Shown one piece after another: positions 4,346 through 57,060 of a stretch of 64,000 nt of DNA. The position numbers and the translations under genes are program-made. The notes under the pieces were generated by a model, which worked only from the letters and a program-made list of their open reading frames with translations, had not been told where the DNA came from and did no database searches. Every line of letters begins with the position of its first letter. Position 1 is the stretch's first letter. Source of the stretch: Cordylochernes scorpioides. Taxonomy: Eukaryota > Arthropoda > Arachnida > Pseudoscorpiones > Chernetidae. The stretch is from contig CP092872.1 in the NCBI GenBank assembly GCA_030710605.1, positions 94,706,922-94,770,921 of the forward strand, given 5' to 3'.

Positions 4346-7272
4346 TCAAGAGTTACCAACATGTATTCCACATCTTAAAACCAAGAGCTACCAACATGTA
4401 TTCCACATCTTAAAACCAAGAGCTACCAACATGTATTTCACATCTTAAAACCAAGAGCTACCAACATGTATTCCACATCTTAAAACCAAGAGCTACCAAC
4501 ATGTATTTCACATCATAAAACCAAGAGCTACCAACATGTATTTCACATCATAAAACCAAGAGCTACCAACATGTATTTCACATCATAAAACCAAGAGCTA
4601 CCAACATGTATTTCACATCATAAAACCAAGAGCTACCAACATGTATTTCACATCTTAAAACCAAGAGCTACCAACATGTATTTCACATCTTAAAACCAAG
4701 AGCTACCAACATGTATTTCACATCTTAAAACCAAGAGCTACCAACATGTATTTCACATCTTAAAACCAAGAGCTACCAACATGTATTTCACATCTTAAAA
4801 CCAAGAGCTACCAACATGTATTTCACATCTTAAAACCAAGAGCTACCAACACGTATTTCACATCTTAAAACCAAGAGCTACCAACATATATTTCACATCT
4901 TAAAACCAAGAGCTACCAACATGTATTTCACATCTTAAAACCAAGAGCTACCAACATGTATTTCACATCTTAAAACCAAGAGCTACCAACATGTATTTCA
5001 CATCTTAAAACCAAGAGCTACCAACATGTATTCCACATCTTAAAACCAAGAGCTACCAACATGTATTCCACATCTTAAAACCAAGAGCTACCAACATGTA
5101 TTTCACATCTTAAAACCAAGAGCTACCAACATGTATTCCACATCTTAAAACCAAGAGCTACCAACATGTATTCCACATCTTAAAACCAAGAGCTACCAAC
5201 ATGTATTCCACATCTTAAAACCAAGAGCTACCAACATGTATTTCACATCTTAAAACCAAGAGCTACCAACATGTATTTCACATCTTAAAACCAAGAGCTA
5301 CCAACATGTATTTCACATCTTAAAACCAAGAGCTACCAACATGTATTTCACATCTTAAAACCAAGAGCTACCAACATGTATTCCACATCTTAAAACCAAG
5401 AGCTACCAACATGTATTCCACATCTTAAAACCAAGAGCTACCAACATGTATTTCACATCTTAAAACCAAGAGCTACCAACATGTATTCCACATCTTAAAA
5501 CCAAGAGCTACCAACATGTATTCCACATCTTAAAACCAAGAGCTACCAACATGTATTCCACATCTTAAAACCAAGAGCTACCAACATGTATTTCACATCT
5601 TAAAACCAAGAGCTACCAACATGTATTTCACATCTTAAAACCAAGAGCTACCAACATGTATTTCACATCTTAAAACCGAAGCTACCAACATGTATTCCAC
5701 ATCTTAAAACCAAGAGCTACCAACATGTATTCCACATCTTAAAACCAAGAGCTACCAACATGTATTCCACATCTTTACCACCAAGAGCTACTAACATGTA
5801 TTACACATCAAAACCAAGAGCTACCAACAAGTATTCCACATCTTAAAACCAAGAGCTACCAACATGTATTCCACATCTTAAAACCAAGAGCTACCAACAT
5901 GTATTCCACATCTTAAAACCAAGAGCTACCAACATGTATTCCACATCTTAAAACCAAGAGCTACCAACATGTATTCCACATCTTAAAACCAAGAGCTACC
6001 AACATGTATTTCACATCTTAAAACCAAGAGCTACCAACATGTATTTCACATCTTAAAACCAAGAGCTACCAACATGTATTTCACATCTTAAAACCAAGAG
6101 CTACCAACATGTATTTCACATCTTAAAACCAAGAGCTACCAACATGTATTTCACATCTTAAAACCAAGAGCTACCAACATGTATTTCACATCTTAAAACC
6201 GAAGCTACCAACATGTATTCCACATCTTAAAACCAAGAGCTACCAACATGTATTTCACATCTTAAAACCGAAGCTACCAACATGTATTTCACATCTTAAA
6301 ACCAAGAGCTACCAACATGTATTTCACATCCTAAAACCAAGAGCTACCAACATGTATTTCACATCTTAAAACCAAGAGCTACCAACATGTATTTCACATC
6401 TTAAAACCAAGAGCTACCAACATGTATTCCACATCTTTACCACCAAGAGCTACCAACATGTATTTCACATCTTAAAACCAAGAGCTACCAACATGTATTC
6501 GACATTTTAAAACCAAGAGCTACCAACATGTATTTCACATCTTAAAACCAAGAGCTACCAACATGTATTTCACATCTTAAAACCAAGAGCTACCAACATG
6601 TATTTCACATCTTAAAACCAAGAGCTACCAACATGTATTCGACATTTTAAAACCAAGAGCTACTAACATGTATTACACATCTTAAAACCAAGAGCTACCA
6701 ACATGTATTCCACATCTTTACCACCAAGAGCTACCAACATGTATTTCACATCTTAAAACCAAGAGCTACCAACATGTATTTCACATCTTAAAACCAAGAG
6801 CTACCAACATGTATTTCACATCTTAAAATCAAGAGCTACCAACATGTAATAACATCTTAAAACCAAGAGCTACCAACATGTATTCCACATCTTAAAACCA
6901 AGAGCTACCAACATGTATTTCACATCTTAAAACCAAGAGCTACCAACATGTATTCCACATCTTAAAACCAAGAGCTACCAACATGTATTTCACATCTTAA
7001 AACCAAGAGCTACCAACATGTATTTCACATCTTAAAACCAAGAGCTACCAACATGTATTCCACATCTTTACCACCAAGAGCTACCAACATGTATTTCACA
7101 TCTTAAAACCAAGAGCTACCAACATGTATTCCACATCTTAAAACCAAGAGCTACCAACATGTATTTCACATCTTAAAACTAAGAGCTACCAACATGTATT
7201 TCACATCTTAAAACCAAGAGCTACCAACATGTATTTCACATCTTAAAACTAAGAGCTACCAACATGTATTTC
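4346..7272 (+). repeat. 35-bp satellite array, about 83 copies
   Basis: Direct head-to-tail units of CCAAGAGCTACCAACATGTA plus a 15-base remainder. Monomer variants are patterned: TTCCAC versus TTTCAC, a run with CATCATAAAACC at 4500-4630, CTTTACCACC units at about 5775, 6435, 6715 and 7065, TTCGACATTTT units at about 6500 and 6640, and shortened ACCGAAGC units at about 5675, 6195 and 6265. Recurring variants at a distance imply duplication of multi-unit blocks. No spacers are present. Confidence 0.97.
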
Positions 7273-7299
7273 ACATCAAAGCACCAAGAACTCCACACA

Positions 7300-7641
7300 T
7301 ATCTCTATATAGATGGAAATTTTTGCCGGGAGGAAATTATCTAAAGAGACAAGGGTCACCTCTCCCGTCAAAATAGACGTCTAAAACCAGACGCCATCTA
7401 TTGACCGTCGCCGCAAGACGCCGTGTGGATCTCATGGAATAAAGTCCGCCCTAGACTGACGAGGGCCATTAGCCCGAAACCATGGTCTCTAGGTGGACGC
7501 TTTTCAGTTTGCCAAAGCTGATGTTGTGGCTTTGTCACCGACCCGAGGCCGCTAGTTGCGGCGACGGTCAATAGATGGCGTCTGGTTTTAGACGTCTATT
7601 TTGACGGGAGAGGCGACCCTTGTCTCTTTACATATCTCTAT
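7300..7641 (+). mobile_element. Foldback element M2, copy 1, with central hammerhead
   Basis: Two inverted arms of about 75 bp (roughly 7340-7417 and 7556-7632) share CTCCCGTCAAAATAGACGTC and CCATCTATTGACCGTCGCCG with their complements. The region between them holds a hammerhead ribozyme fold (see 7444-7498). Both outer edges carry ATATCTCTAT, possibly a target duplication. No protein is encoded. Related copies lie at 15405, 25365, 28305, 49205 and 56515. Confidence 0.85.
7444..7498 (+). ncRNA. Hammerhead ribozyme, apparently complete (M2 copy 1)
   Basis: Parts in order: the 5' strand of stem I (GTCC, a two-base bulge GC, CCTAGA); the core CTGACGA, which fits CUGANGA; stem II (GGGC and GCCC around CATTA); the core GAAA; stem III; the cleavage triplet GTC ending at 7487; and the 3' strand of stem I (TCTAGG, a T bulge, GGAC). 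Stem I has 6 plus 4 pairs and stem II has 4 GC pairs. Stem III is only ACC/GGT with a two-base loop, but ACCATGGT is self-complementary, so it could form better between two RNA copies. Short stem III is known from hammerheads in Penelope-like elements and satellites. Activity is inferred, not shown. Confidence 0.85.
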
Positions 7642-8476: not shown

Positions 8477-9899
8477 TACACTGCGTGACATTGAAAATGG
8501 AACACCAAGAAATAGTGGCCAGAAAATTATGCAAATTTCAGGGTAGACGCGCCTAACCGAGTTATGCAAATGATGTAAAATGCGCAGCTCTCGTGCGCAC
8601 ATGGAGTAAGATATAAGGGAAGGAACTTGCAGAAAGGACAGTATTCGTTTCGTTATTTCTTCAAGGAAAATCATTGTAGAAATTTTGTTTTTGTGTCAAA
8701 AGACACGTGTAATAACAGAGAATGCCAGGTCATCGTAAACGGAGGCAGTTCAAGCAGACAGACGCTTTTACGAGGGGCATGGTGATCGGACTGAAAAGGG
8801 CAGGTTGGTCCATACGTCAAATCGCAGCTGATACACACCTTGGTGCGTCCACGGTGCACCGACTGTGGAGAAGATGGTTGGAACAAGGAAATGTGGCAAT
8901 TTATAGGAATGTCGGTGCAACCAGAGTGACGTCAGCACATGTGGATCGGCGTATCCTTCGACAAGCAGTGGCGGCCCCACAAGCAACTTGTACCGCCATC
9001 CTGCAACATGTGCAAGACACCCTAGATCATTCCATCTCGACCAGAACCATTTCCCGTCGATTGGTTGCTAATGGCTTGCACTCATGCCGTCCGCTAAGAA
9101 GACTGCCATTGACCCCACCGAATAGGCGCCAACGTTTGGGATGGTGCCGGGCTAGATCGACGTGGATGACGGAATGGCACAGGGTCGTGTTCTCAGATGA
9201 GTCGCGTTTCTGCTTGTCCAGTGATAGTCGCCGTGTACGCGTGTGGCGTCGACGTGGAGAAAGGTCCAATCCGGCAGCAATTGTGGAACGCCCCACCGTG
9301 CGACAACGTGGAATCATGGTTTGGGGCGCAATCGCCTATGATTCCAGGTCACCTTTACTTCGTATTCAGGGCACTATGACGGCCCAACGATACGTTGATG
9401 ATGTGCTGCGACCGGTGACACTCCCCTACCTTCAGGGGGTACCCAATGCCCTTTATCAGCAGGATAACGCCCGACCGCACACTGCTCGCATTAGCCAACA
9501 AGCTCTGCAAGATGTACAGATGCTTCCCTGGCCACCGTACTCTCCTGAACTCTCACCAATCGAGCACGTCTGAGACATCATTGGACGCCGTTTGCATGCC
9601 TTGCCACAGCCGCGTTCAGAAGACGAACTGTGGCAAATGGTTGAGAGGGAATGGAGAGCCATCCCTCAGGATGCCATCCGTACTCTGATTGACTCTCTAC
9701 CTAGACGTGTTGCTGCGTGCATCGCCGTCCGCGGTGGTCCTACTTGCTACTAAGCCGACGCCGTTCTCGCTCTGTATTATGACTATCATTTTGAAATAAA
9801 GATCACTTATTGTTCGTCCCTGTCTCTCTCTGTCTGCCGAGTTTCATCACTTTCTGGCCACTATTTCTTGGTGTTCCATTTTCAATGTCACGCAGTGTA
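8477..9899 (+). mobile_element. Tc1-like transposon with perfect 49-bp terminal inverted repeats
   Basis: The first and last 49 bp (8477-8525 and 9851-9899) are exact reverse complements, beginning TACACTGCGTGACATTG and including the TA target. The 1423-bp unit holds one transposase frame on the plus strand. Identical ends and a nearly open transposase point to a recent insertion. The host site is an M1 MITE. Confidence 0.97.
8722..9753 (+). pseudogene. Tc1/mariner-superfamily transposase with one internal TGA
   Basis: This would encode the enzyme that binds the inverted repeats and cuts and pastes the element at TA sites. The reading frame runs 343 codons from ATG 8722 to TAA 9751 and is broken only by TGA at 9571 (codon 284), directly after SPIEHV, where this family normally has tryptophan. 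The N-terminus has a helix-turn-helix (GWSIRQIAADTHLGASTVHR, residues about 33-52). Catalytic acidic residues are visible in VVFSDESRF, LYQQDNARPH and LSPIEHV. I count 32 residues between the second Asp and the Glu; Tc1 usually has 34. A single point change inactivates an otherwise well-preserved copy. Stop-codon readthrough or a consensus error are alternatives. Confidence 0.93.
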
Positions 9900-14870: not shown

Positions 14871-15404
14871 GACTATTTAAAGACTTAGAAGGTTTATTTG
14901 ATCATTACAAATGACTCCAGGATTCTGATAAGATAATCAAAAACATTTTGGTAACCTTTAAGACAAACGGGAAGTTTGGAGTGGTAAATATGCAATACAG
15001 TCAATACAAACTATTACATACTGAACGAACAGACTACATATGATATTATTAGTTATCTCTAGTTAAGTAATGCGCTAACCATTATAACGATATATATATC
15101 TCCATATTCATCTAACTAATTAGAAACTGGGGCAATTAAACGTAATTATCGCGCTAATTGGTTAGTAATTTACAAACCACAGGCTCTCTAATCGAACGGT
15201 GTTTTTTGCCAGGTGTAGCTGGGTTGAACAAAGATAAGACAATGTCATATTCCTCACCCCATTCTCACTGTGCTATAGCTATTCCTTAACTGAAAATAAC
15301 GGTAGGAAATTGATATATAAAAATAAATGTCGACTCTCAAAGAATGACACTTAGTTTTAACGTCTATTTTGACGGAAGAGGTGACCTTCATTTCTATAGA
15401 TCAA
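14871..15404. other. No recognised gene
   Basis: AT-rich single-copy sequence. The last 40 bp resemble an M2 arm (GTCTATTTTGACGGAAGAGG). Confidence 0.45.
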
Positions 15405-15890
15405 TATCCTCCGACAAAATTTCCATCTATATTTTGGTCATAGATTTGGTCTAGCCATTCTATCAGTTAAACACCTCTTCCCATCCCTGGACACTCTTAT
15501 TTTTCCGTTCATCATTACTCTTCATAATTCATCCTTTCATACCTCATCCAAAAAGGTTAGAAATAGTCAATATTTCACCTTGAAATAAATTTAGATTTTT
15601 CATTGAAAAGAAACTCATGCGGTGAAACTTTAAGTGTTGTTTTACAAACACCTCTTTGTCAGATTGTGAAGATTCCATTTGATCCCTTGTGGATCTCATG
15701 TAATAAAACCAGTCCTGGACTGAAAAGGGCCATTAGCCCGAAATTATGGTCTTCAGGTGGGTTCTTCTCAGTTTACAAAATATGATGTAGTGGCTTTGTC
15801 ACCGACCTGAGTCCGTTAGTCGTTCAATATATGACGTTTAGTTTGAGTATCTATTTTGACGGGAGAGAGGAGACCTTTATTATAGTTAAT
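15405..15890 (+). mobile_element. Foldback element M2, copy 2, decayed
   Basis: Carries M2 landmarks in order: TTTCCATCTATATT, AAACACCTCTT, GATCCCTTGTGGATCTCATG, a degraded hammerhead (15710-15758) and the right arm GTCTATTTTGACGGGAGAGA. The left inverted arm is mostly lost. Confidence 0.7.
15710..15758 (+). ncRNA. Degenerate hammerhead ribozyme (M2 copy 2)
   Basis: Stem II GGGC/GCCC and GAAA are intact. The core reads CTGAAAA, so the essential G after the variable base is lost. Stem I is CCTGGA pairing with TTCAGG, against CCTAGA/TCTAGG in copy 1: one A-U pair has become G-C on both sides. This covariation supports the fold even though this copy should be inactive. Confidence 0.7.
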
Positions 15891-25305: not shown

Positions 25306-25364
25306 CTTTTTTATTTTTAATATCAACACCTGACCTTTTTATTTTTTGTTTTTTCATATATATA

Positions 25365-25700
25365 TATATGGAAATTTTTACCGGGAGGAAATCAATACAT
25401 AGAAGCAATGGACGCTTCTCCCGTCAAAATTAACGTCAGAATCTGACGCCATCTATTGACCGTCGCCGCAACTAGCGGCATCGGGTCGGTGACAAAGCCA
25501 CAACACCAACTTTGGCAAACTGATAAGCGTCCACCTAGAGACCATGGTTTCGGGCTAATGGCCTTCGTCAGTCTAGGGCGGACTTTATTCCATGAGATCC
25601 ACACGGGATCTAGTTGCGGCGACGGTCAATGGATGGCTTCAGATTCTGACGTTTATTTTGACGAGAGAAGTGCCCATTGCTTCTATATATATATATATAT
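25365..25700 (-). mobile_element. Foldback element M2, copy 3
   Basis: Both inverted arms are present (CTCCCGTCAAAATTAACGTC side and GACGTTTATTTTGACGAGAG side) with GCCATCTATTGACCGTCGCC and complement. The hammerhead is central, on the minus strand. Confidence 0.85.
25529..25583 (-). ncRNA. Hammerhead ribozyme, nearly complete (M2 copy 3)
   Basis: Same parts as the 7444 copy: stem I GTCC+CCTAGA / TCTAGG+GGAC, core CTGACGA and GAAA, triplet GTC. The first stem II pair is changed from G-C to A-C, which should weaken stem II. Everything else is retained. Confidence 0.75.
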
Positions 25701-27297: not shown

Positions 27298-27836
27298 TTC
27301 GGGATTCTTTTTTAAATCTACGATTTTAGTTGAAATACATTCTAATAGATGGCGAAAGTCATCATTATGTTTTAGTTACTGAATCAAAGGAAATGTTAAG
27401 TTTATGTAATTACATATTCGGTTTCAGCATTTACATATTCCATCTCGATTTTATTTACATATATACATAATCTTTCGCTAGAGCCAAATGGGTATTTCAA
27501 AATGCACATATCTATAAGGGCTATGTATAGAACAAAATGCTTTTTTTATATTGATTCTCATCAATTCTTTGACTGCGTGGAAACTATATCCAGTTACAGA
27601 TGTGGTTTTCTCTCGATCAGAAATTGCATGGAGGCGATATTGCGTGCGGCAAAATAAAATCAAGGAAAGAGTATAAAACATATTTTGAATTGTAGATTAC
27701 TATCCTACTGTCACAAAATACTGGGAAAATAAGCTCTATTAGAATCTAATATATGAGCTATATATATATTAATTGCATAATTCCCATATGCAAATATGTA
27801 TTACAAGGATATATGCAAATATGTATTATACGACTA
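27298..27836. other. No recognised gene
   Basis: AT-rich. A 67-codon minus-strand frame near 27478-27681 has no recognisable features. Confidence 0.45.
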
Positions 27837-28162: not shown

Positions 28163-28304
28163 TGTATTTATGTATGCATTCATGTTGTAAAATCTAGCAA
28201 AAGGTTTTGAAATCGATAAAAAAAGGTTTATTTTCACAACACGAGTATCTTTAGTTGAGTTTAAAATGTAACCCTTCAAGCAAAAAAAAACCACTTATAT
28301 ACAC

Positions 28305-28560
28305 ATTATAGATGGAAATTTTGCCGGGAGGATATTGATTTAAAGAGACAAAGGTCGCCTCTCCCGTCAAAATAGACGTCAAAACTAGACGCCATCTATT
28401 GACCGTCACCGCAAACTAGCGGTCTCGGGTCGGTGAAAGCTGGTGTTGTGGCTTTGTCACCGACCCGAGACCGCTAGTTTGCGGTGACGGTCAATAGATG
28501 GCGTCTAGTTTTGACGTCTATTTTGACGGGAGAGGCGACCTTTGTCTCTTTAAATACACA
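28305..28560. mobile_element. Foldback element M2, copy 4, hammerhead lost
   Basis: Consists almost only of the two M2 arms: an exact 99-bp inverted repeat (28338-28436 against 28457-28555) around a 20-base centre AAGCTGGTGTTGTGGCTTTG. The hammerhead segment found between the arms in copies 1, 3 and 5 is missing. Confidence 0.95.
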
Positions 28561-28574
28561 TTATATACAATAAA

Positions 28575-31471: not shown

Positions 31472-31520
31472 GCAACCACGTACGCGTTTCGGGCTGTTGG
31501 CCCTCATCAGCGTGGTGCAA
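31472..31520 (-). ncRNA. Hammerhead ribozyme, apparently complete (M3 type)
   Basis: On the minus strand: stem I strand GCACCACG; core CTGATGA; stem II GGGC and GCCC around CAACA; GAAA; stem III; triplet GTA; stem I strand CGTGGTTGC. ACCACG pairs with CGTGGT over 6 bp, with two more pairs beyond a bulged T. Stem III is the self-complementary ACGCGT, with no room for a loop, so it would need two RNA copies or be very short. The cleavage triplet GUA is allowed by the NUH rule. All core nucleotides are present. It differs from the M2 hammerhead in every helix. Confidence 0.82.
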
Positions 31521-31924: not shown

Positions 31925-32080
31925 ATAAGACTGCTCAACTCTTTTTATTTACTTGATTAAAGGAAGCTTTCGAGCAAGCCCTTCTTCAGCTAACTAAAAC
32001 GTTTTAGTAACCTGAAGAAGGGCTTGCTCGAAATATTCCTTTAAATAAATAAATAAAAGAGTTGCGTCGTTTTATAATAT
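31925..32080. mobile_element. Foldback element with hairpin modules in both arms
   Basis: AACTCTTTTTATTTACTTGA.. AGCTTTCGAGCAAGCCCTTC TTCAG is mirrored by CTGAAGAAGGGCTTGCTCGA ..TAAATAAAAGAGTTG. Each arm has CTGAAGA, GGGC..GCTC, GAAA and AATAAA in that order, reading outward. Confidence 0.8.
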
Positions 32081-44899: not shown

Positions 44900-45705
44900 T
44901 TCAAACGTTCGGGAATTTCCACTCATCAACAGGAGTACAAAATATGAAACGCCCTTTGATGCTGTCTATAATCGAATTATATTTTTCATTAAGTTGTTAA
45001 CGTGATAATCCTGTTGAAGGATTGACAAGTCCGAAAGCTTGAAAATAAAAAGTTGCATAAGAAACTTAACCCTGGAAGCTTCATTTCATAATAATCGAAT
45101 GAAGCTTTCGGTCATTTCCGCCTGTCTACAGGAGTACAAAATATGAAACGCCCTTTGATGGTATTTATAATCGAATTGTATTTTTCATTAAGTTGTTAAC
45201 GTGATACTCCTGTTGAAGGACTCACAAGTCCGAAAGCTTGAAAATAAAAAGTTGCATAAGAAACTTAACCCTGGAAGCTTCATTTCATAATAATCGAATG
45301 AAGCTTTCGGTCATTTCCGCCTGTCTACAGGAGTAGAAAATATGAAACGCCGTTTGATGGTATTTATAATCGAATTGTATTTTTCATTAAGTTGTTAACG
45401 TGATAATCCTGTTGAAGGACTGACAAGTCCGAAAGCTTGAAAATAAAAAGTTGCATAAGAAACTTAACCCTGGAAGCTTCATTTCATAATAATCGAATGA
45501 AGCTTTCGGTCATTTCCGCCTGTCTACAGGAGTACAAAATATGAAACGCCCTTTGATGCTGTCTATAATCGAATTGTATTTTTCATTAAGTTGTTAACAT
45601 GATACTCCTGTTGAAGGATTGACAAGTCCGAAAGCTTGAAAATAAAAAGTTGCATAAGAAACTTAACCCTGGAAGCTTCATTTCATAATAATCGAATGTA
45701 GATAT
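44900..45705 (+). repeat. Four tandem copies of a 199-bp unit with a hammerhead-like hairpin
   Basis: AGGAGTACAAAATATGAAAC starts at 44931, 45130, 45329 and 45528, exact 199-bp spacing. Each unit has CTGTTGA, then AGGACTGACAAGTCC (a GGACT/AGTCC hairpin), then GAAAGCTTG and AAAATAAAAAG. This matches the order of a hammerhead core, but the first box is CTGTTGA (A replaced by T at the sixth core position) and no convincing stem I is seen. Confidence 0.9.
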
Positions 45706-49078: not shown

Positions 49079-49206
49079 TCATGTGCCAAAAAAGCACCTC
49101 TCCCTTCAAATATGCATTAGAGCAATTTTTTTTACTAGGGTGATATAAGTAATGTATTGTTCTAATGAATATTTAAAGGGAGATGTGCCTCTTTTTGGTA
49201 CATGTA
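49079..49206. mobile_element. MITE M7
   Basis: CATGTGCCAAAAAAGCACCT, CTCCCTT at the left and AAGGGAGATGTGCCTC, TTTTTGGTACATG at the right, with GGTGATATAAGTAATG between. Related pieces lie at 50615-50745, 51128-51245, 51315-51370 and 51400-51500. Confidence 0.8.
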
Positions 49207-49610
49207 TATATGTAGATGGAAAATTTGCCGGTAGGAAATTAATCCATAGAAGCATAGGGCGCCTCTCCCCTATGCTTCTATGGATTAATTTCCTCCCGGC
49301 AAATTTTCCATCTATATTCTAGCCATAGATTTGGCCCAGCCACCTTGTCAGCAAAACACCTCTTTGGTAGATTGTCAAGATTCCATTAGATCCCGTGTGG
49401 ATCTCATAGAATAAAGTCCGCCCTAGACTGACGAGGGCCATTAGCCCGAAACCATGGTGTCTAGGTGGATGCTTCTCAGTTTTCCAAAGCTGGTGTTGTG
49501 GCTTTGTCACCGACCTGAGGCCGCTAGTTGCGGCGACGGTCAATAGATGGCGTCAGGTTTTGACGTTTATTTTGACGGGAGAGGCGACCATTGCTTCTAT
49601 GTATATATGT
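49205..49610 (+). mobile_element. Foldback element M2, copy 5
   Basis: The left side is a near-perfect palindrome (49213-49313, arms about 47 bp, TAGATGGAAAATTTGCCGG and complement). M2 landmarks follow (GGATCTCATAGAATAAAG, the hammerhead, GGCGACGGTCAATAGATGG and TATTTTGACGGGAGAGGCG). Confidence 0.85.
49426..49469 (+). ncRNA. Hammerhead ribozyme with mutated cleavage site (M2 copy 5)
   Basis: Stem I CCTAGA/TCTAGG, core CTGACGA, stem II GGGC/GCCC and GAAA are intact. The triplet is GTG (49457-49459) instead of GTC. The hammerhead requires any base except G at that position, so self-cleavage should be blocked. Confidence 0.78.
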
Positions 49611-50539: not shown

Positions 50540-51500
50540 ATAAATATGTTTTAAACCTTCAAATCTCTAAGAAAAGGAGCTTACGTTTCTTCAAAGTTTC
50601 AAACAAACATATATAAACGTACCAAATTAAGGTACCTTACCTTTTAAATATACATTTGTAGAATGCATCACTTATATCACCCTAGTAAAAATTGATCTAA
50701 TGTATATTTAAAGGGAGAGGTGGTTCTTCTCTCAAACCTTTAAGTCTCTAAGAAAGGAGCTGATTGTAACAATAGACTAAGAGGGTCATTAAAATATACT
50801 TCTTCTTCTTCTTTGCTTATCCCTAGTACACGTGGTACAGGCCATGATAATCATAGTGGGTAGAAGTTGGCGACTGCTTTTACTGTAAGCGCACCACATG
50901 TCTATACATGTGAAAAGCAGTTCGACTTTGCACTCACAAATTTGCCAGAGCCCCGTTTGGTTACTTGCACTCGCTGGTGGGGTTGGACTTTTGCAAGAAT
51001 CAGGGGGCATTTGGAGCATTTTTTTTCTTAAATCAGAAAAAAAGTGTCCAATGCGGGATAAAATATACTTAATTGTCTAAGAAAAGGACTTTAGGTTTCT
51101 TCAAAGTTTCAACCAAACATATATACACGTACCAAATTAAGGTACCTTACCTTTTAAATATGGATTAGAACAATGCATTACTTTTTATCATCCTACTGAA
51201 AATTGATCTAATGTATTAAAATAAAAACATAAAGCTTCCAGGGAAAAGTTTCTTTTAAAAATATTTTTTTATTTAAAAAATATCTCGAGCTTTCGGGCAA
51301 GTAAGCCCTTCTACGGGAGAAAATGATCTAATGTATATTTAAAGGGAGAGGTGTTTTTCTCTCTCAATTCTTCAAATCTCCTAAAAAGGAGCTAACGGTT
51401 CTTCAAAGTTCCAACCACACATTTATACATGTACCAAATGGGGCACCTTAACTTTTAAATATACATTGGAACAATGCATTACTTATATCATTTTACAATA
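50540..51500. repeat. Region of repeated M7 pieces
   Basis: The word group CTAAGAAAGGAGC, TTCTTCAAAGTTTCAACCA, TACCAAATTAAGGTACCTTA and ATGTATATTTAAAGGGAGAG recurs three times (about 50560, 51080 and 51370), with a SINE1 in one gap and an M6-type arm (CGAGCTTTCGGGCAAGTAAG) at 51290. Confidence 0.7.
50802..51059 (-). mobile_element. SINE1, 5'-truncated, with 11-bp target duplication
   Basis: Flanked by AAAATATACTT (50791-50801 and 51060-51070). The tail side GCTTATCCCTAGTACACG is at the left. The copy breaks off at ATGCGGGAT within the B box, so it lacks the tRNA-like head. Truncation with a duplication is as expected for LINE-driven insertion. Confidence 0.92.
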
Positions 51501-51578
51501 TTTTCTGCAACGTGATGGTATAAATTGTAGCTAAATGATGTATTCTGGCATGCAGAGGGTCTCCAGAAAGTGACTTAC

Positions 51579-51768
51579 CGAGACCTGGTACAATGATGTT
51601 GAAGAAACAGAGGAGAAAGGCCAACGGTAGTGGCATCATTGGTACAGCCTTGCGGAAACGGCCATGCCTCTCCCTGACTTGTACAATCTCATAGTTGTTG
51701 GTGGGGCGGTCGAATTGGTCAGGTGTGCCTATGGCGGACACCACCTGAGTCTTGGTGACCACTCCCAT
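51579..51768 (-). CDS. First coding exon of a Stum/SPEC3-like membrane protein
   Basis: The SPEC3/Stum family comprises small membrane proteins; Drosophila Stum is needed in mechanosensory neurons. ATG at 51768 has a good context (GACATGG) and an in-frame TAG 13 codons upstream. The exon encodes 63 residues plus one base: MGVVTKTQVV.., a polar N-terminus with GTPDQFDRP, basic RERHGRFRK, then the conserved start of the first hydrophobic segment MPLPLAFLLCF and NIIVPGLG. The PxMPxPxAxxC and N..xPGLG pattern is the family signature. The coding sequence ends at a donor reading G|GTAAGT on the minus strand, so the rest of the gene lies to the left beyond an intron. I did not find a second exon in the window. 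It is the only convincing host coding sequence here. Confidence 0.82.
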
Positions 51769-52106
51769 GTCAGAGCGTGCAACTAACTGACTCCGTGCCG
51801 CCCTCTACCGGCCGTATGGATCGACGCGTTCTGTCCTAACTCCCGCACTACACGGACACATCTGTTATCTCTGTTTTATACTATTCATTAGATGTATTTG
51901 TCATTAGAAAAGTTACGACAATGTATTTCTACCCCTCTTGTACACAAAATGAATGAGTCTACAGAAAATAGTCTACATGAAACTAGGACATAGTTAATCT
52001 ATCTCTTTTATTTCTATATTTTATACCTGGCCTGGGGAATCTAACCTTTTTGAACAACTTTGGTTGCGTTCAGCACCTTGATACTTTGATATAGTGCATT
52101 AAGATC
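51769..52106 (-). promoter_or_regulatory. Probable 5' UTR and proximal upstream region of the Stum-like gene
   Basis: Single-copy sequence just upstream of the ATG, GC-richer at 51770-51860. No TATA box or initiator can be named with confidence. Confidence 0.4.
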
Positions 52107-55870: not shown

Positions 55871-56514
55871 TCACATATAATGATGGCGATATAATCAAAT
55901 ATAGATGGCGCTATATGTGTGTTCTGGCATCGAATTTAAAAAAGAAATTTGCATAATTTTATATTTTCTCTAAACAATCAATATTTACTCTATCGATTTC
56001 ATGAAATAAACCTGTAAGAATAATACGTCTCCATACCCCTTTTAATCCATCGCCGCAAATGCTGAAAATATGCAACTTTATTAATTTTTATGCAAAAAAA
56101 CAAAACCACACACGCGTAAAAAGAGCGTGCATACCTTTCTCATTTTAAGAAATTTTAGAAGGAAGAAGAGTTCTTAATTAAAAGTCTTTTTTAAAAAATA
56201 TTTATGCAAACACAAAAATGTTTCTTCTCAAATTAATTTTCATACCGCACAACAAAAATAAAATGTTGGTTATATGTAAAAAAGGTAAATTAGTTTCGTC
56301 TGCTTGTATCATCATCAATCAAATTTTAAAATGGAAGTTTCGATATTGTGTTTTTTTAATAAATGTGTTTCTATAAGGTAAGGGGTGCAATATATAATAA
56401 CATTTTATAGGATTTGTGTTTGTTGATGATTAAGTCTTCGCCATTTAATTAAATAGGTAGTAAAGATATTTAAAAAGAGCAATGTGTATTGATATCAAAT
56501 TCTTCCAATGTAGA
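55871..56514. other. No recognised gene
   Basis: AT-rich single-copy sequence. Confidence 0.5.
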
Positions 56515-56790
56515 TGAATTTTGCCGGAAGAGAATTTTTTCAGAAAGGTTTATTTTCGTTTAAAAATGATTTTTTTCTAAATCTCTGCATTATGCATGAG
56601 TTGTGTTTTTTTAAAGTTAAAATATTTTAATATATATAATATAAAGTTGCGGGAGGATGATATTCATGTACCTAGAGTTGTGGCTTTGTCACCGACCCGA
56701 GGTCACTAGTTTGCGGCGACGGTCAATAGATGGCGTCTGGCTTTAACGTCTATTTTGACGGGAGAGGTGACATTTATCTTCATATATCTC
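56515..56790 (+). mobile_element. Foldback element M2, copy 6, fragment
   Basis: TGTAGATGAATTTTGCCGG at the left, TTGTGGCTTTGTCACCGACC, GGCGACGGTCAATAGATGG and TATTTTGACGGGAGAGGTG at the right. The hammerhead segment is not recognisable. Confidence 0.7.
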
Positions 56791-56944
56791 TTCCTTTAAT
56801 TATGCACATTAGAACGATGCATTATGATCATCACCCTAGTAAAAACCTTTACTAATGGTGATGAAATATAAGCCACAACACCAGTTTAACAAATTCAGAT
56901 AAAAGACTGTACTGATCAGTGCCAATACCCTAAACCATGGTGTA

Positions 56945-57060
56945 TAGTAAGCAAAAATTCGAGAATCACGGGACGAGTGTCTTTTGTACGAAGATTTATT
57001 GTAAATCGCTCAAGCTTTCGGGCTGACCGGCCCTTCTACAGGAGACAAGTGAAAAACATA
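56945..57060 (-). mobile_element. One arm of an M6-type foldback
   Basis: GATTTATTGTAAATCGCTCA, AGCTTTCGGGCTGACCGG, CCCTTCTACAGGAG. On the minus strand: CTGTAGA, GGGC..GCCC, GAAAGCTTGAG. Confidence 0.7.

What the first reader, a model, noticed from the sequence alone, without database searches (positions are those of the whole stretch)
7444..7498. Apparently complete hammerhead ribozyme inside a foldback (inverted-repeat) element
All invariant parts are visible: CTGACGA, GAAA, GTC, stem I (6+4 pairs with an internal bulge) and stem II (4 GC pairs). It sits between two 75-bp inverted arms. Known hammerhead hosts are Penelope-like elements, retrozymes, satellites and some SINE-like repeats; I am not aware of a foldback or MITE host. 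Stem III is self-complementary (ACCATGGT), suggesting that two RNA copies form it. This is the best candidate here for an undescribed system.
Basis: partly seen in the sequence, partly recalled or inferred. Interest (0 to 1): 0.88.

Follow-up and report, generated by a model that had tools for sequence, protein, structure and literature searches.

The report
Hammerhead ribozyme in Penelope-type foldback insertion
The self-cutting RNA motif is really there, but its host is probably not a new kind of foldback transposon: it looks like a short non-coding mobile element inserted by Penelope-type reverse-transcription machinery, and its ends may help show which enzyme moves such small ribozyme elements.

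Summary
7444-7498 (+) fits a complete type I hammerhead (stem I 6+4, stem II 4 GC, stem III ACCATGGT, cleavage after 7487) between 79-nt arms, 97% complementary. Rfam's hammerhead models report nothing. Three more copies exist, all damaged, plus a second hammerhead family, intact at 31.5k. The novel-host reading does not hold. M2 copies carry the insertion signature published for Penelope-like elements (PLEs): 12-nt target-site duplications at 3 of 6 copies, inverted head-to-head terminal copies, and a 29-34 nt tail on exactly one end in 6 of 6. The second family shows one tail at 4 of 4 loci assessed, with longer tails (44-52 nt in three). This asymmetry argues against a symmetric foldback or MITE. 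No PLE enzyme gene was found among 30 of 163 ORFs, and no genome is held, so PLE machinery is inferred from structure. Two copies keep a short non-coding unit, 318 nt in E3, the size of animal retrozymes, whose mobilising enzyme is unknown and suspected to be a PLE. Best reading: a retrozyme-sized hammerhead element inserted by PLE machinery; the foldback is a by-product of insertion.

The parts
7297..7308 (.). left target-site duplication ACATATCTCTAT
   Evidence: exact 12-nt repeat of 7630-7641; 12 nt or more at about 2e-4 of random sites outside tandem arrays
7309..7342 (-). tail (34 nt), present on the left end only
   Evidence: tail score 54 on the left end, 12 on the right end; random-site 99% level 19; length
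7338..7416 (-). left inverted arm
   Evidence: 97% complementary to 7556-7634; 1 difference in 75 aligned columns from the right arm, and a shared private 1-nt insertion
7444..7498 (+). type I hammerhead ribozyme, cleavage expected after 7487
7514..7555 (+). sense terminal-repeat sequence between hammerhead and right arm (AAAGC...GCTTT; the turning point in the 28.3k copy)
7556..7629 (+). right arm; holds ATAGATGGCG, which also stands downstream of the hammerhead in the second family
7630..7641 (.). right target-site duplication
25529..25583 (-). hammerhead of copy E2 (A.C mismatch at the base of stem II); element about 25362-25692, tail on the sense arm instead of the inverted arm
49202..49610 (+). 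copy E3 with 12-nt TSDs, inverted tail arm, internal tail, short body and hammerhead 49416-49470 (G at the cleavage position); 318-nt unit
28299..28565 (+). copy E4: arms without ribozyme, 12-nt TSDs, arms differ at 0 of 74
15300..15885 (+). old copy E5 with broken hammerhead 15708-15762 and the same short body, interrupted by an insertion; tail score only just above the random 99% level
56511..56791 (+). old copy E6: left tail and right arm, no ribozyme between them; hammerhead relic nearby at 56911-56947
31475..31518 (-). intact hammerhead of the second family (stem III ACGCGT, cleavage GTA)

Best explanation
M2 is a short, non-autonomous, hammerhead-bearing retroelement inserted by Penelope-like (PLE) machinery. 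Proposed cycle: transcripts of adjacent ~318-nt units are cut by the hammerhead, probably as a dimer, giving unit-length linear or circular RNA. A PLE endonuclease/reverse transcriptase cuts an AT-rich target with a ~12-nt stagger and starts cDNA synthesis inside the RNA at one of two sites about 30-34 nt apart, from both broken target ends. The two cDNAs of the same RNA are then joined head to head at short homology. One end therefore carries the tail, the arms are inverted copies of one template, and the hammerhead sits in the longer cDNA. Shown here: TSDs in 3 of 6 copies, one-sided tail, inverted arms, near-identical arms in E1 and E4, the short unit in two copies. Inferred: self-cleavage, RNA circles, the PLE enzyme, two-ended priming.
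For: TSDs of exactly 12 nt in E1, E3 and E4, about 2e-4 by chance each. Tail on exactly one end in 6 of 6 M2 copies, on the inverted arm in 5 and on the sense arm in 1; the same dichotomy in 4 of 4 assessed loci of a second hammerhead family, with 10-nt TSDs at 2 of these 4 and an 11-nt one with 1 mismatch at a third. Arms of E1 differ at 1 of 75 and of E4 at 0 of 74, while arms of different elements differ at 4 to 18. Published PLE insertions have inverted pLTRs, a 31-bp tail on one of them and 8-10 bp TSDs (PMC3846280, passages). A purified PLE extends both target strands and starts at two internal sites that bound the tail (PMC11167929, passages). PLE terminal repeats carry type I hammerheads (PMC7761336, section). 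The 318-nt unit lies in the 170-400 nt range of animal retrozymes (PMC7229834, passages).
Against: No PLE RT or GIY-YIG gene found: 30 of 163 ORFs of 70 aa or more were scanned; RVT_1 hits at 63.1-63.9k and a sub-cutoff zf-RVT hit at 22.3-23.0k came without GIY-YIG. E2's arms differ at 7 of 74 while E2's right arm differs from E3's at only 5. E1 and E2 join arm and ribozyme side within about 4 nt of the same place (by eye), which also fits a foldback copied as a unit. E5 and E6 have no TSD; E2's lies in an AT repeat; one of four H2 loci has none. H2 tails of 44, 46 and 52 nt exceed the published 30-40 bp. M2's stem III is fuller than the minimal PLE type. In the published assay the RT start site did not differ between target strands, so it does not predict one tail per copy; there hammerhead mutants did not affect insertion, and no reads ended at the cleavage site (PMC11167929).
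Confidence: 0.78

Rival explanations
1. The M2 pieces are simply 5'-truncated or internally deleted copies of one ordinary autonomous PLE; the short unit is a deletion product and there is no separate retrozyme-like family. (This shares the PLE insertion step with the best explanation.)
For: Same terminal signature. ATGGCG stands in the right arm of 5 of 6 M2 copies; from it the frame is open to the end of the arm without tail in 4 of these 5 (E1 has a stop; E2 a stop in the tail), as expected if the pLTR holds the first codons of a PLE ORF (12 to 22 codons in A. vaga, PMC3846280). 15 to 18 codons open is weak evidence.
Against: E3 and E5 share the same body of about 100 nt between tail and hammerhead although they are only 78.7% identical over the ribozyme part, so it is not a one-off recent deletion.
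Confidence: 0.35
2. The foldback itself is the replicating unit: a DNA foldback/MITE that captured a hammerhead.
For: E1 and E2 share nearly the same arm-ribozyme junction; arms also occur without the ribozyme (E4).
Against: Ends are not symmetric: one-sided tail in 6 of 6; the tail side switches between E1 and E2; 12-nt TSDs; E3 and E5 have other junctions. No link between M2 ends and the Tc1-type gene at 8.7k was noticed, but none was searched for.
Confidence: 0.08
3. Head-to-head arms arise by self-priming at hairpins on antisense templates, as proposed for A. vaga PLEs, not by priming from both target ends.
For: In E4 the turn lies at AAAGC...GCTTT, a natural hairpin; the A. vaga authors propose self-priming (PMC3846280, passage).
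Against: On simple self-copying the left arm cannot be longer than the right arm, yet the tail is on the inverted (left) arm in 5 of 6.
Confidence: 0.25
4. The hammerhead is a relic without catalytic activity.
For: Three of four M2 copies are damaged; the monomer fold is not the hammerhead; Rfam is silent.
Against: E1 and the 31.5k copy fit the full descriptor; the two-copy fold of each is a double hammerhead, though the energy gain is not above shuffles (114 and 102 of 200 at least as good).
Confidence: 0.2

Closest known systems
Penelope-like elements (Penelope/Poseidon type; A. vaga Pen families, Anolis PAc)
   Same: Type I hammerhead in the terminal repeat, inverted head-to-head repeat, tail of about 30-40 nt on one of the inverted ends, TSDs, AT-rich targets (passages of PMC3846280, PMC11167929, PMC8969392).
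   Different: No RT/endonuclease ORF in M2; TSDs of 12 nt against 8-10 bp in A. vaga; M2 stem III longer than the minimal PLE type; H2 tails longer (44-52 nt in three loci).
Animal non-LTR retrozymes
   Same: Non-coding, type I hammerhead with two-pair stem III and tetraloop, 318-nt unit within 170-400 nt, TSDs longer than 4 bp (passages of PMC7229834, sections of PMC7761336).
   Different: M2 copies are inverted and at most slightly over one unit long, not tandem dimers; the word 'inverted' does not occur in the main text of PMC7229834; its supplements were not read.
Foldback elements / MITEs (definition recalled)
   Same: Short, non-coding, long inverted arms.
   Different: Asymmetric ends, long TSDs, junctions that differ between copies.

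Membership tests
Penelope-like element (autonomous) | ORF with RT and GIY-YIG endonuclease | tested here: not met
   M2 copies hold no such ORF; no GIY-YIG or PLE gene among 30 of 163 window ORFs scanned
Penelope-like element (terminal structure) | inverted pLTR copies with optional short tail on one end | tested here: met
   6 of 6 M2 copies (29-34 nt where measured), 4 of 4 assessed H2 loci (44-52 nt in three)
Penelope-like element (terminal structure) | type I hammerhead in the pLTR | tested here: met
   4 of 6 M2 copies, intact only in E1; intact H2 copy at 31.5k
Penelope-like element (terminal structure) | target-site duplication | tested here: met
   12 nt in 3 of 6 M2 copies; none in 2, ambiguous in 1
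Animal retrozyme | 170-400 nt non-coding unit with type I hammerhead | tested here: met
   318 nt between equivalent sites of E3; same body in E5
Animal retrozyme | tandem (dimer or longer) genomic copies | tested here: inconclusive
   E3 and E5 are a little over one unit; no full dimer seen in the window
Animal retrozyme | circular RNA and self-cleavage | not testable with these tools
   needs RNA
Foldback/MITE DNA transposon | symmetric terminal inverted repeats | tested here: not met
   tail on exactly one end in 6 of 6
Rfam hammerhead families | covariance-model match | tested here: not met
   no match at gathering or E<=10; sensitivity not controlled

The most novel reading that the evidence does not exclude
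M2 is a true retrozyme (a 318-nt ribozyme circle) whose genomic copies bear the end signature of PLE insertion, so its ends name the machinery that moves animal retrozymes, which published sequence analysis could not deduce. The one-tail rule seen in two families further suggests that PLE insertion primes once from each broken target end, using a different one of the two start sites at each end.
Probability: 0.4. Interest if true: 0.72.

Novelty: new variant of a known kind. Interest (0 to 1): 0.5.

Why it matters
A review states that animal retrozyme repeats show no conserved motif that would reveal which autonomous element moves them, with PLEs as likely candidates (PMC7761336, two sections; also PMC7229834, discussion passage). 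A retrozyme-sized hammerhead element with PLE-type ends would make this directly testable by comparing ends genome-wide. The one-tail rule, if it holds, would also constrain how PLEs complete both ends of an insertion, steps that one study calls yet to be validated (PMC11167929, passage).

Tried and rejected
Whole-genome search: no genome is held for the window, so genome-wide copies and a full-length PLE could not be sought. Rfam: only a tRNA at gathering; many microRNA matches below gathering lie on other inverted repeats. IMG/VR scans with the M2 core pattern: 0 stretches; with a looser core: 1 stretch, L001, which by eye lacks a fitting stem III and cleavage site and has no Rfam hit at gathering; I read it as a chance match. 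Dimer folding: one evaluation of a hand-written dimer structure failed (meaningless energy); the cofold replaced it. Its gain over two monomers is not above dinucleotide shuffles (E1 114 of 200, H2 102 of 200 at least as good), so only the shape, not the energy, supports dimer action. Whether E1 and E2 share a junction by descent or by a hot spot was not resolved.

Limits of the counts. Element ends and windows were chosen by me after inspection. The M2 tail reference is the internal copy of E3; the H2 reference is the tail of the 38.5k copy itself, so that locus scores itself (76). The random-site null contains the real tails. H2 loci at 28.9k, 31.5k, 37.6-38.0k and 44.7k were not scored for tails, and no null was run for H2 TSDs. 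The arm comparison used 8 of the 12 aligned arm pieces; E5's two and E3's two short pieces were left out. Pfam saw 30 of 163 ORFs.

Literature. Searches listed no paper that I recognised as reporting a hammerhead in a foldback or MITE element; four lists were cut (30 of 42, 15 of 32, 15 of 24, 15 of 71), and most listed papers were seen only as listings. The library lacks Cervera and De la Pena 2014, Lunse 2017 and Craig 2021, so absence from print is not shown.

Full report
Observation. The stretch 7444-7498 (+) is as described: all invariant hammerhead positions, stem I in two blocks, stem II of four G-C pairs, stem III ACCATGGT, cleavage expected after 7487. Arms are 79 nt and 97% complementary. 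A full descriptor finds 2 hits in the window and 1 in 300 Markov sequences of 64 kb; it was written with the motif known. Rfam is silent at gathering and at E<=10, for the second intact hammerhead too, and I ran no positive control.

Copies. Self-comparison and inspection give six M2 copies: E1 7.3k, E2 25.5k (minus strand), E3 49.4k, E4 28.3k (arms only), E5 15.5k (old), E6 56.7k (old, no ribozyme between its arms). Four hold a hammerhead, intact only in E1: E2 has an A.C pair at the base of stem II, E3 a G at the cleavage position, E5 a broken core. A second family (H2, stem III ACGCGT, cleavage GTA) has an intact hammerhead at 31.5k and damaged or partial ones at 34.7k, 35.4k, 44.7k and 28.9k.

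Ends. E1, E3 and E4 are flanked by exact 12-nt repeats (ACATATCTCTAT, ATGTATATATGT, ATACACATTATA); 12 nt or more occurs at about 2e-4 of random sites outside tandem arrays. E2 lies in an AT repeat; E5 and E6 show none. In all six copies one end extends beyond the other by a tail, 34 nt in E1 and E3 and about 29 nt in E4. Scored against an internal tail copy, the tail ends of E1 to E6 give 54, 46, 66, 51, 20 and 26, the opposite ends 12, 14, 14, 11, 11 and 12; random sites give 12 at the median and 19 at 99%. E5's 20 is only just above that. The tail is on the inverted arm in 5 of 6 and on the sense arm in E2. In H2, 4 of 4 loci assessed show the same dichotomy (tail ends 56, 44, 76, 61; others 10, 13, 11, 14; random 99% level 23; the 76 is the reference scoring itself). 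Their TSDs are 10, 10 and 11 nt (1 mismatch) at three and none at the fourth, without a null of their own. Three H2 tails measure 44, 46 and 52 nt, longer than the published 30-40.

Arms. The two arms of E1 differ at 1 of 75 columns and share a private inserted base; those of E4 differ at 0 of 74. Arms of different elements differ at 4 to 18 (8 of 12 pieces compared). E2 is an exception: its arms differ at 7 while its right arm differs from E3's at 5. So E1 and E4 fit one template per insertion; E2 does not decide.

Unit. E3 and E5 read from a tail through a short body of about 100 nt into the next hammerhead. The repeat length in E3 is 318 nt; E5 has the same body, interrupted by 176 nt that contain a dispersed repeat and are bounded by 11-nt AAACACCTCTT repeats. 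A short non-coding unit is therefore shared by a younger and an older copy.

What it is. Published PLE copies have an inverted, often shortened pLTR, a 31-bp tail on one of the inverted pLTRs and 8-10 bp TSDs (PMC3846280, passages), and inverted pLTRs and short 3' extensions are listed as PLE peculiarities (PMC8969392, passage). A purified PLE extends both target strands and starts at two internal RNA sites that bound the tail, with no difference in start site between strands (PMC11167929, passages). PLE terminal repeats carry minimal type I hammerheads (PMC7761336, section). M2 matches in structure. It is not itself an autonomous PLE: no RT or GIY-YIG gene was seen in it, nor a GIY-YIG among 30 of 163 window ORFs scanned. 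Its 318-nt unit and its two-pair stem III with tetraloop fit animal retrozymes (PMC7229834, passages).

How it works. I propose hammerhead processing of unit RNA, then PLE-driven insertion priming from both target ends, giving head-to-head cDNAs of one template and a one-sided tail. Two RNA copies of E1 fold as a double hammerhead, while one copy prefers another fold, but the energy gain is no better than in shuffles. In RNA the arms of E1 would form a long hairpin with the ribozyme in its apical part, where the predicted local fold is the non-hammerhead one. Against a role for cleavage in insertion, hammerhead mutants did not affect insertion by one PLE in vitro, and no RNA reads ended at its cleavage site (PMC11167929).

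Verdict. Real ribozyme, known kind of host architecture, with one point of interest: it may link retrozyme-sized elements to PLE machinery.

Noticed in passing
31475-31518 (-); damaged or partial at 34.73k, 35.45k, 44.66k, 28.9k: A second hammerhead family with minimal stem III ACGCGT; several head-to-head inverted copies, the same one-sided tail at the 4 loci assessed, and a CTTGATTAATCAAG palindrome just after the ribozyme.
   Followed up: partly
7571, 28494, 34871, 38453, 49543, 56726 (+) and six minus-strand places: ATAGATGGCG stands downstream of the hammerhead in both families, a possible shared ORF start; from recall it also resembles an insulator-protein (CTCF) site. Further copies at 27345 (an H2 remnant) and 55901.
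   Followed up: partly
44929-45698 and about 57010-57037 (-): A 199-bp tandem unit contains CTGACAAGTCCGAAAGC, like a decayed hammerhead core; a similar stretch lies near 57.0k.
   Followed up: no
31968-31989 (-) and 32012-32033 (+): Inverted pair of CTGAAGAAGGGCTTGCTCGAAA, hammerhead-like but not a hit of the full descriptor.
   Followed up: no
60.4-63.9k: Non-LTR retrotransposon pieces on opposite strands: endonuclease-type match (+) at 61.1-62.0k, reverse transcriptase matches (-) at 63.1-63.9k.
   Followed up: partly
8716-9570 (+): Open Tc1-type transposase reading frame of 285 codons; a repeated GGCGAAACCGCTGG...CACTGATGAGCC-like motif lies near 8.45k, 25.1k, 28.65k and 32.1k.
   Followed up: partly
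51496-51804 (-): Weak Pfam match to Spec3, ectodermal ciliogenesis protein (27.6 bits, cut-off 27), a possible host exon.
   Followed up: no
4347-7277: A 35-bp satellite array of about 84 units ends 20 bases before the E1 target-site duplication.
   Followed up: no
L001 12262-12286: A hammerhead-like core in an IMG/VR contig; no fitting stem III or cleavage site seen by eye.
   Followed up: partly
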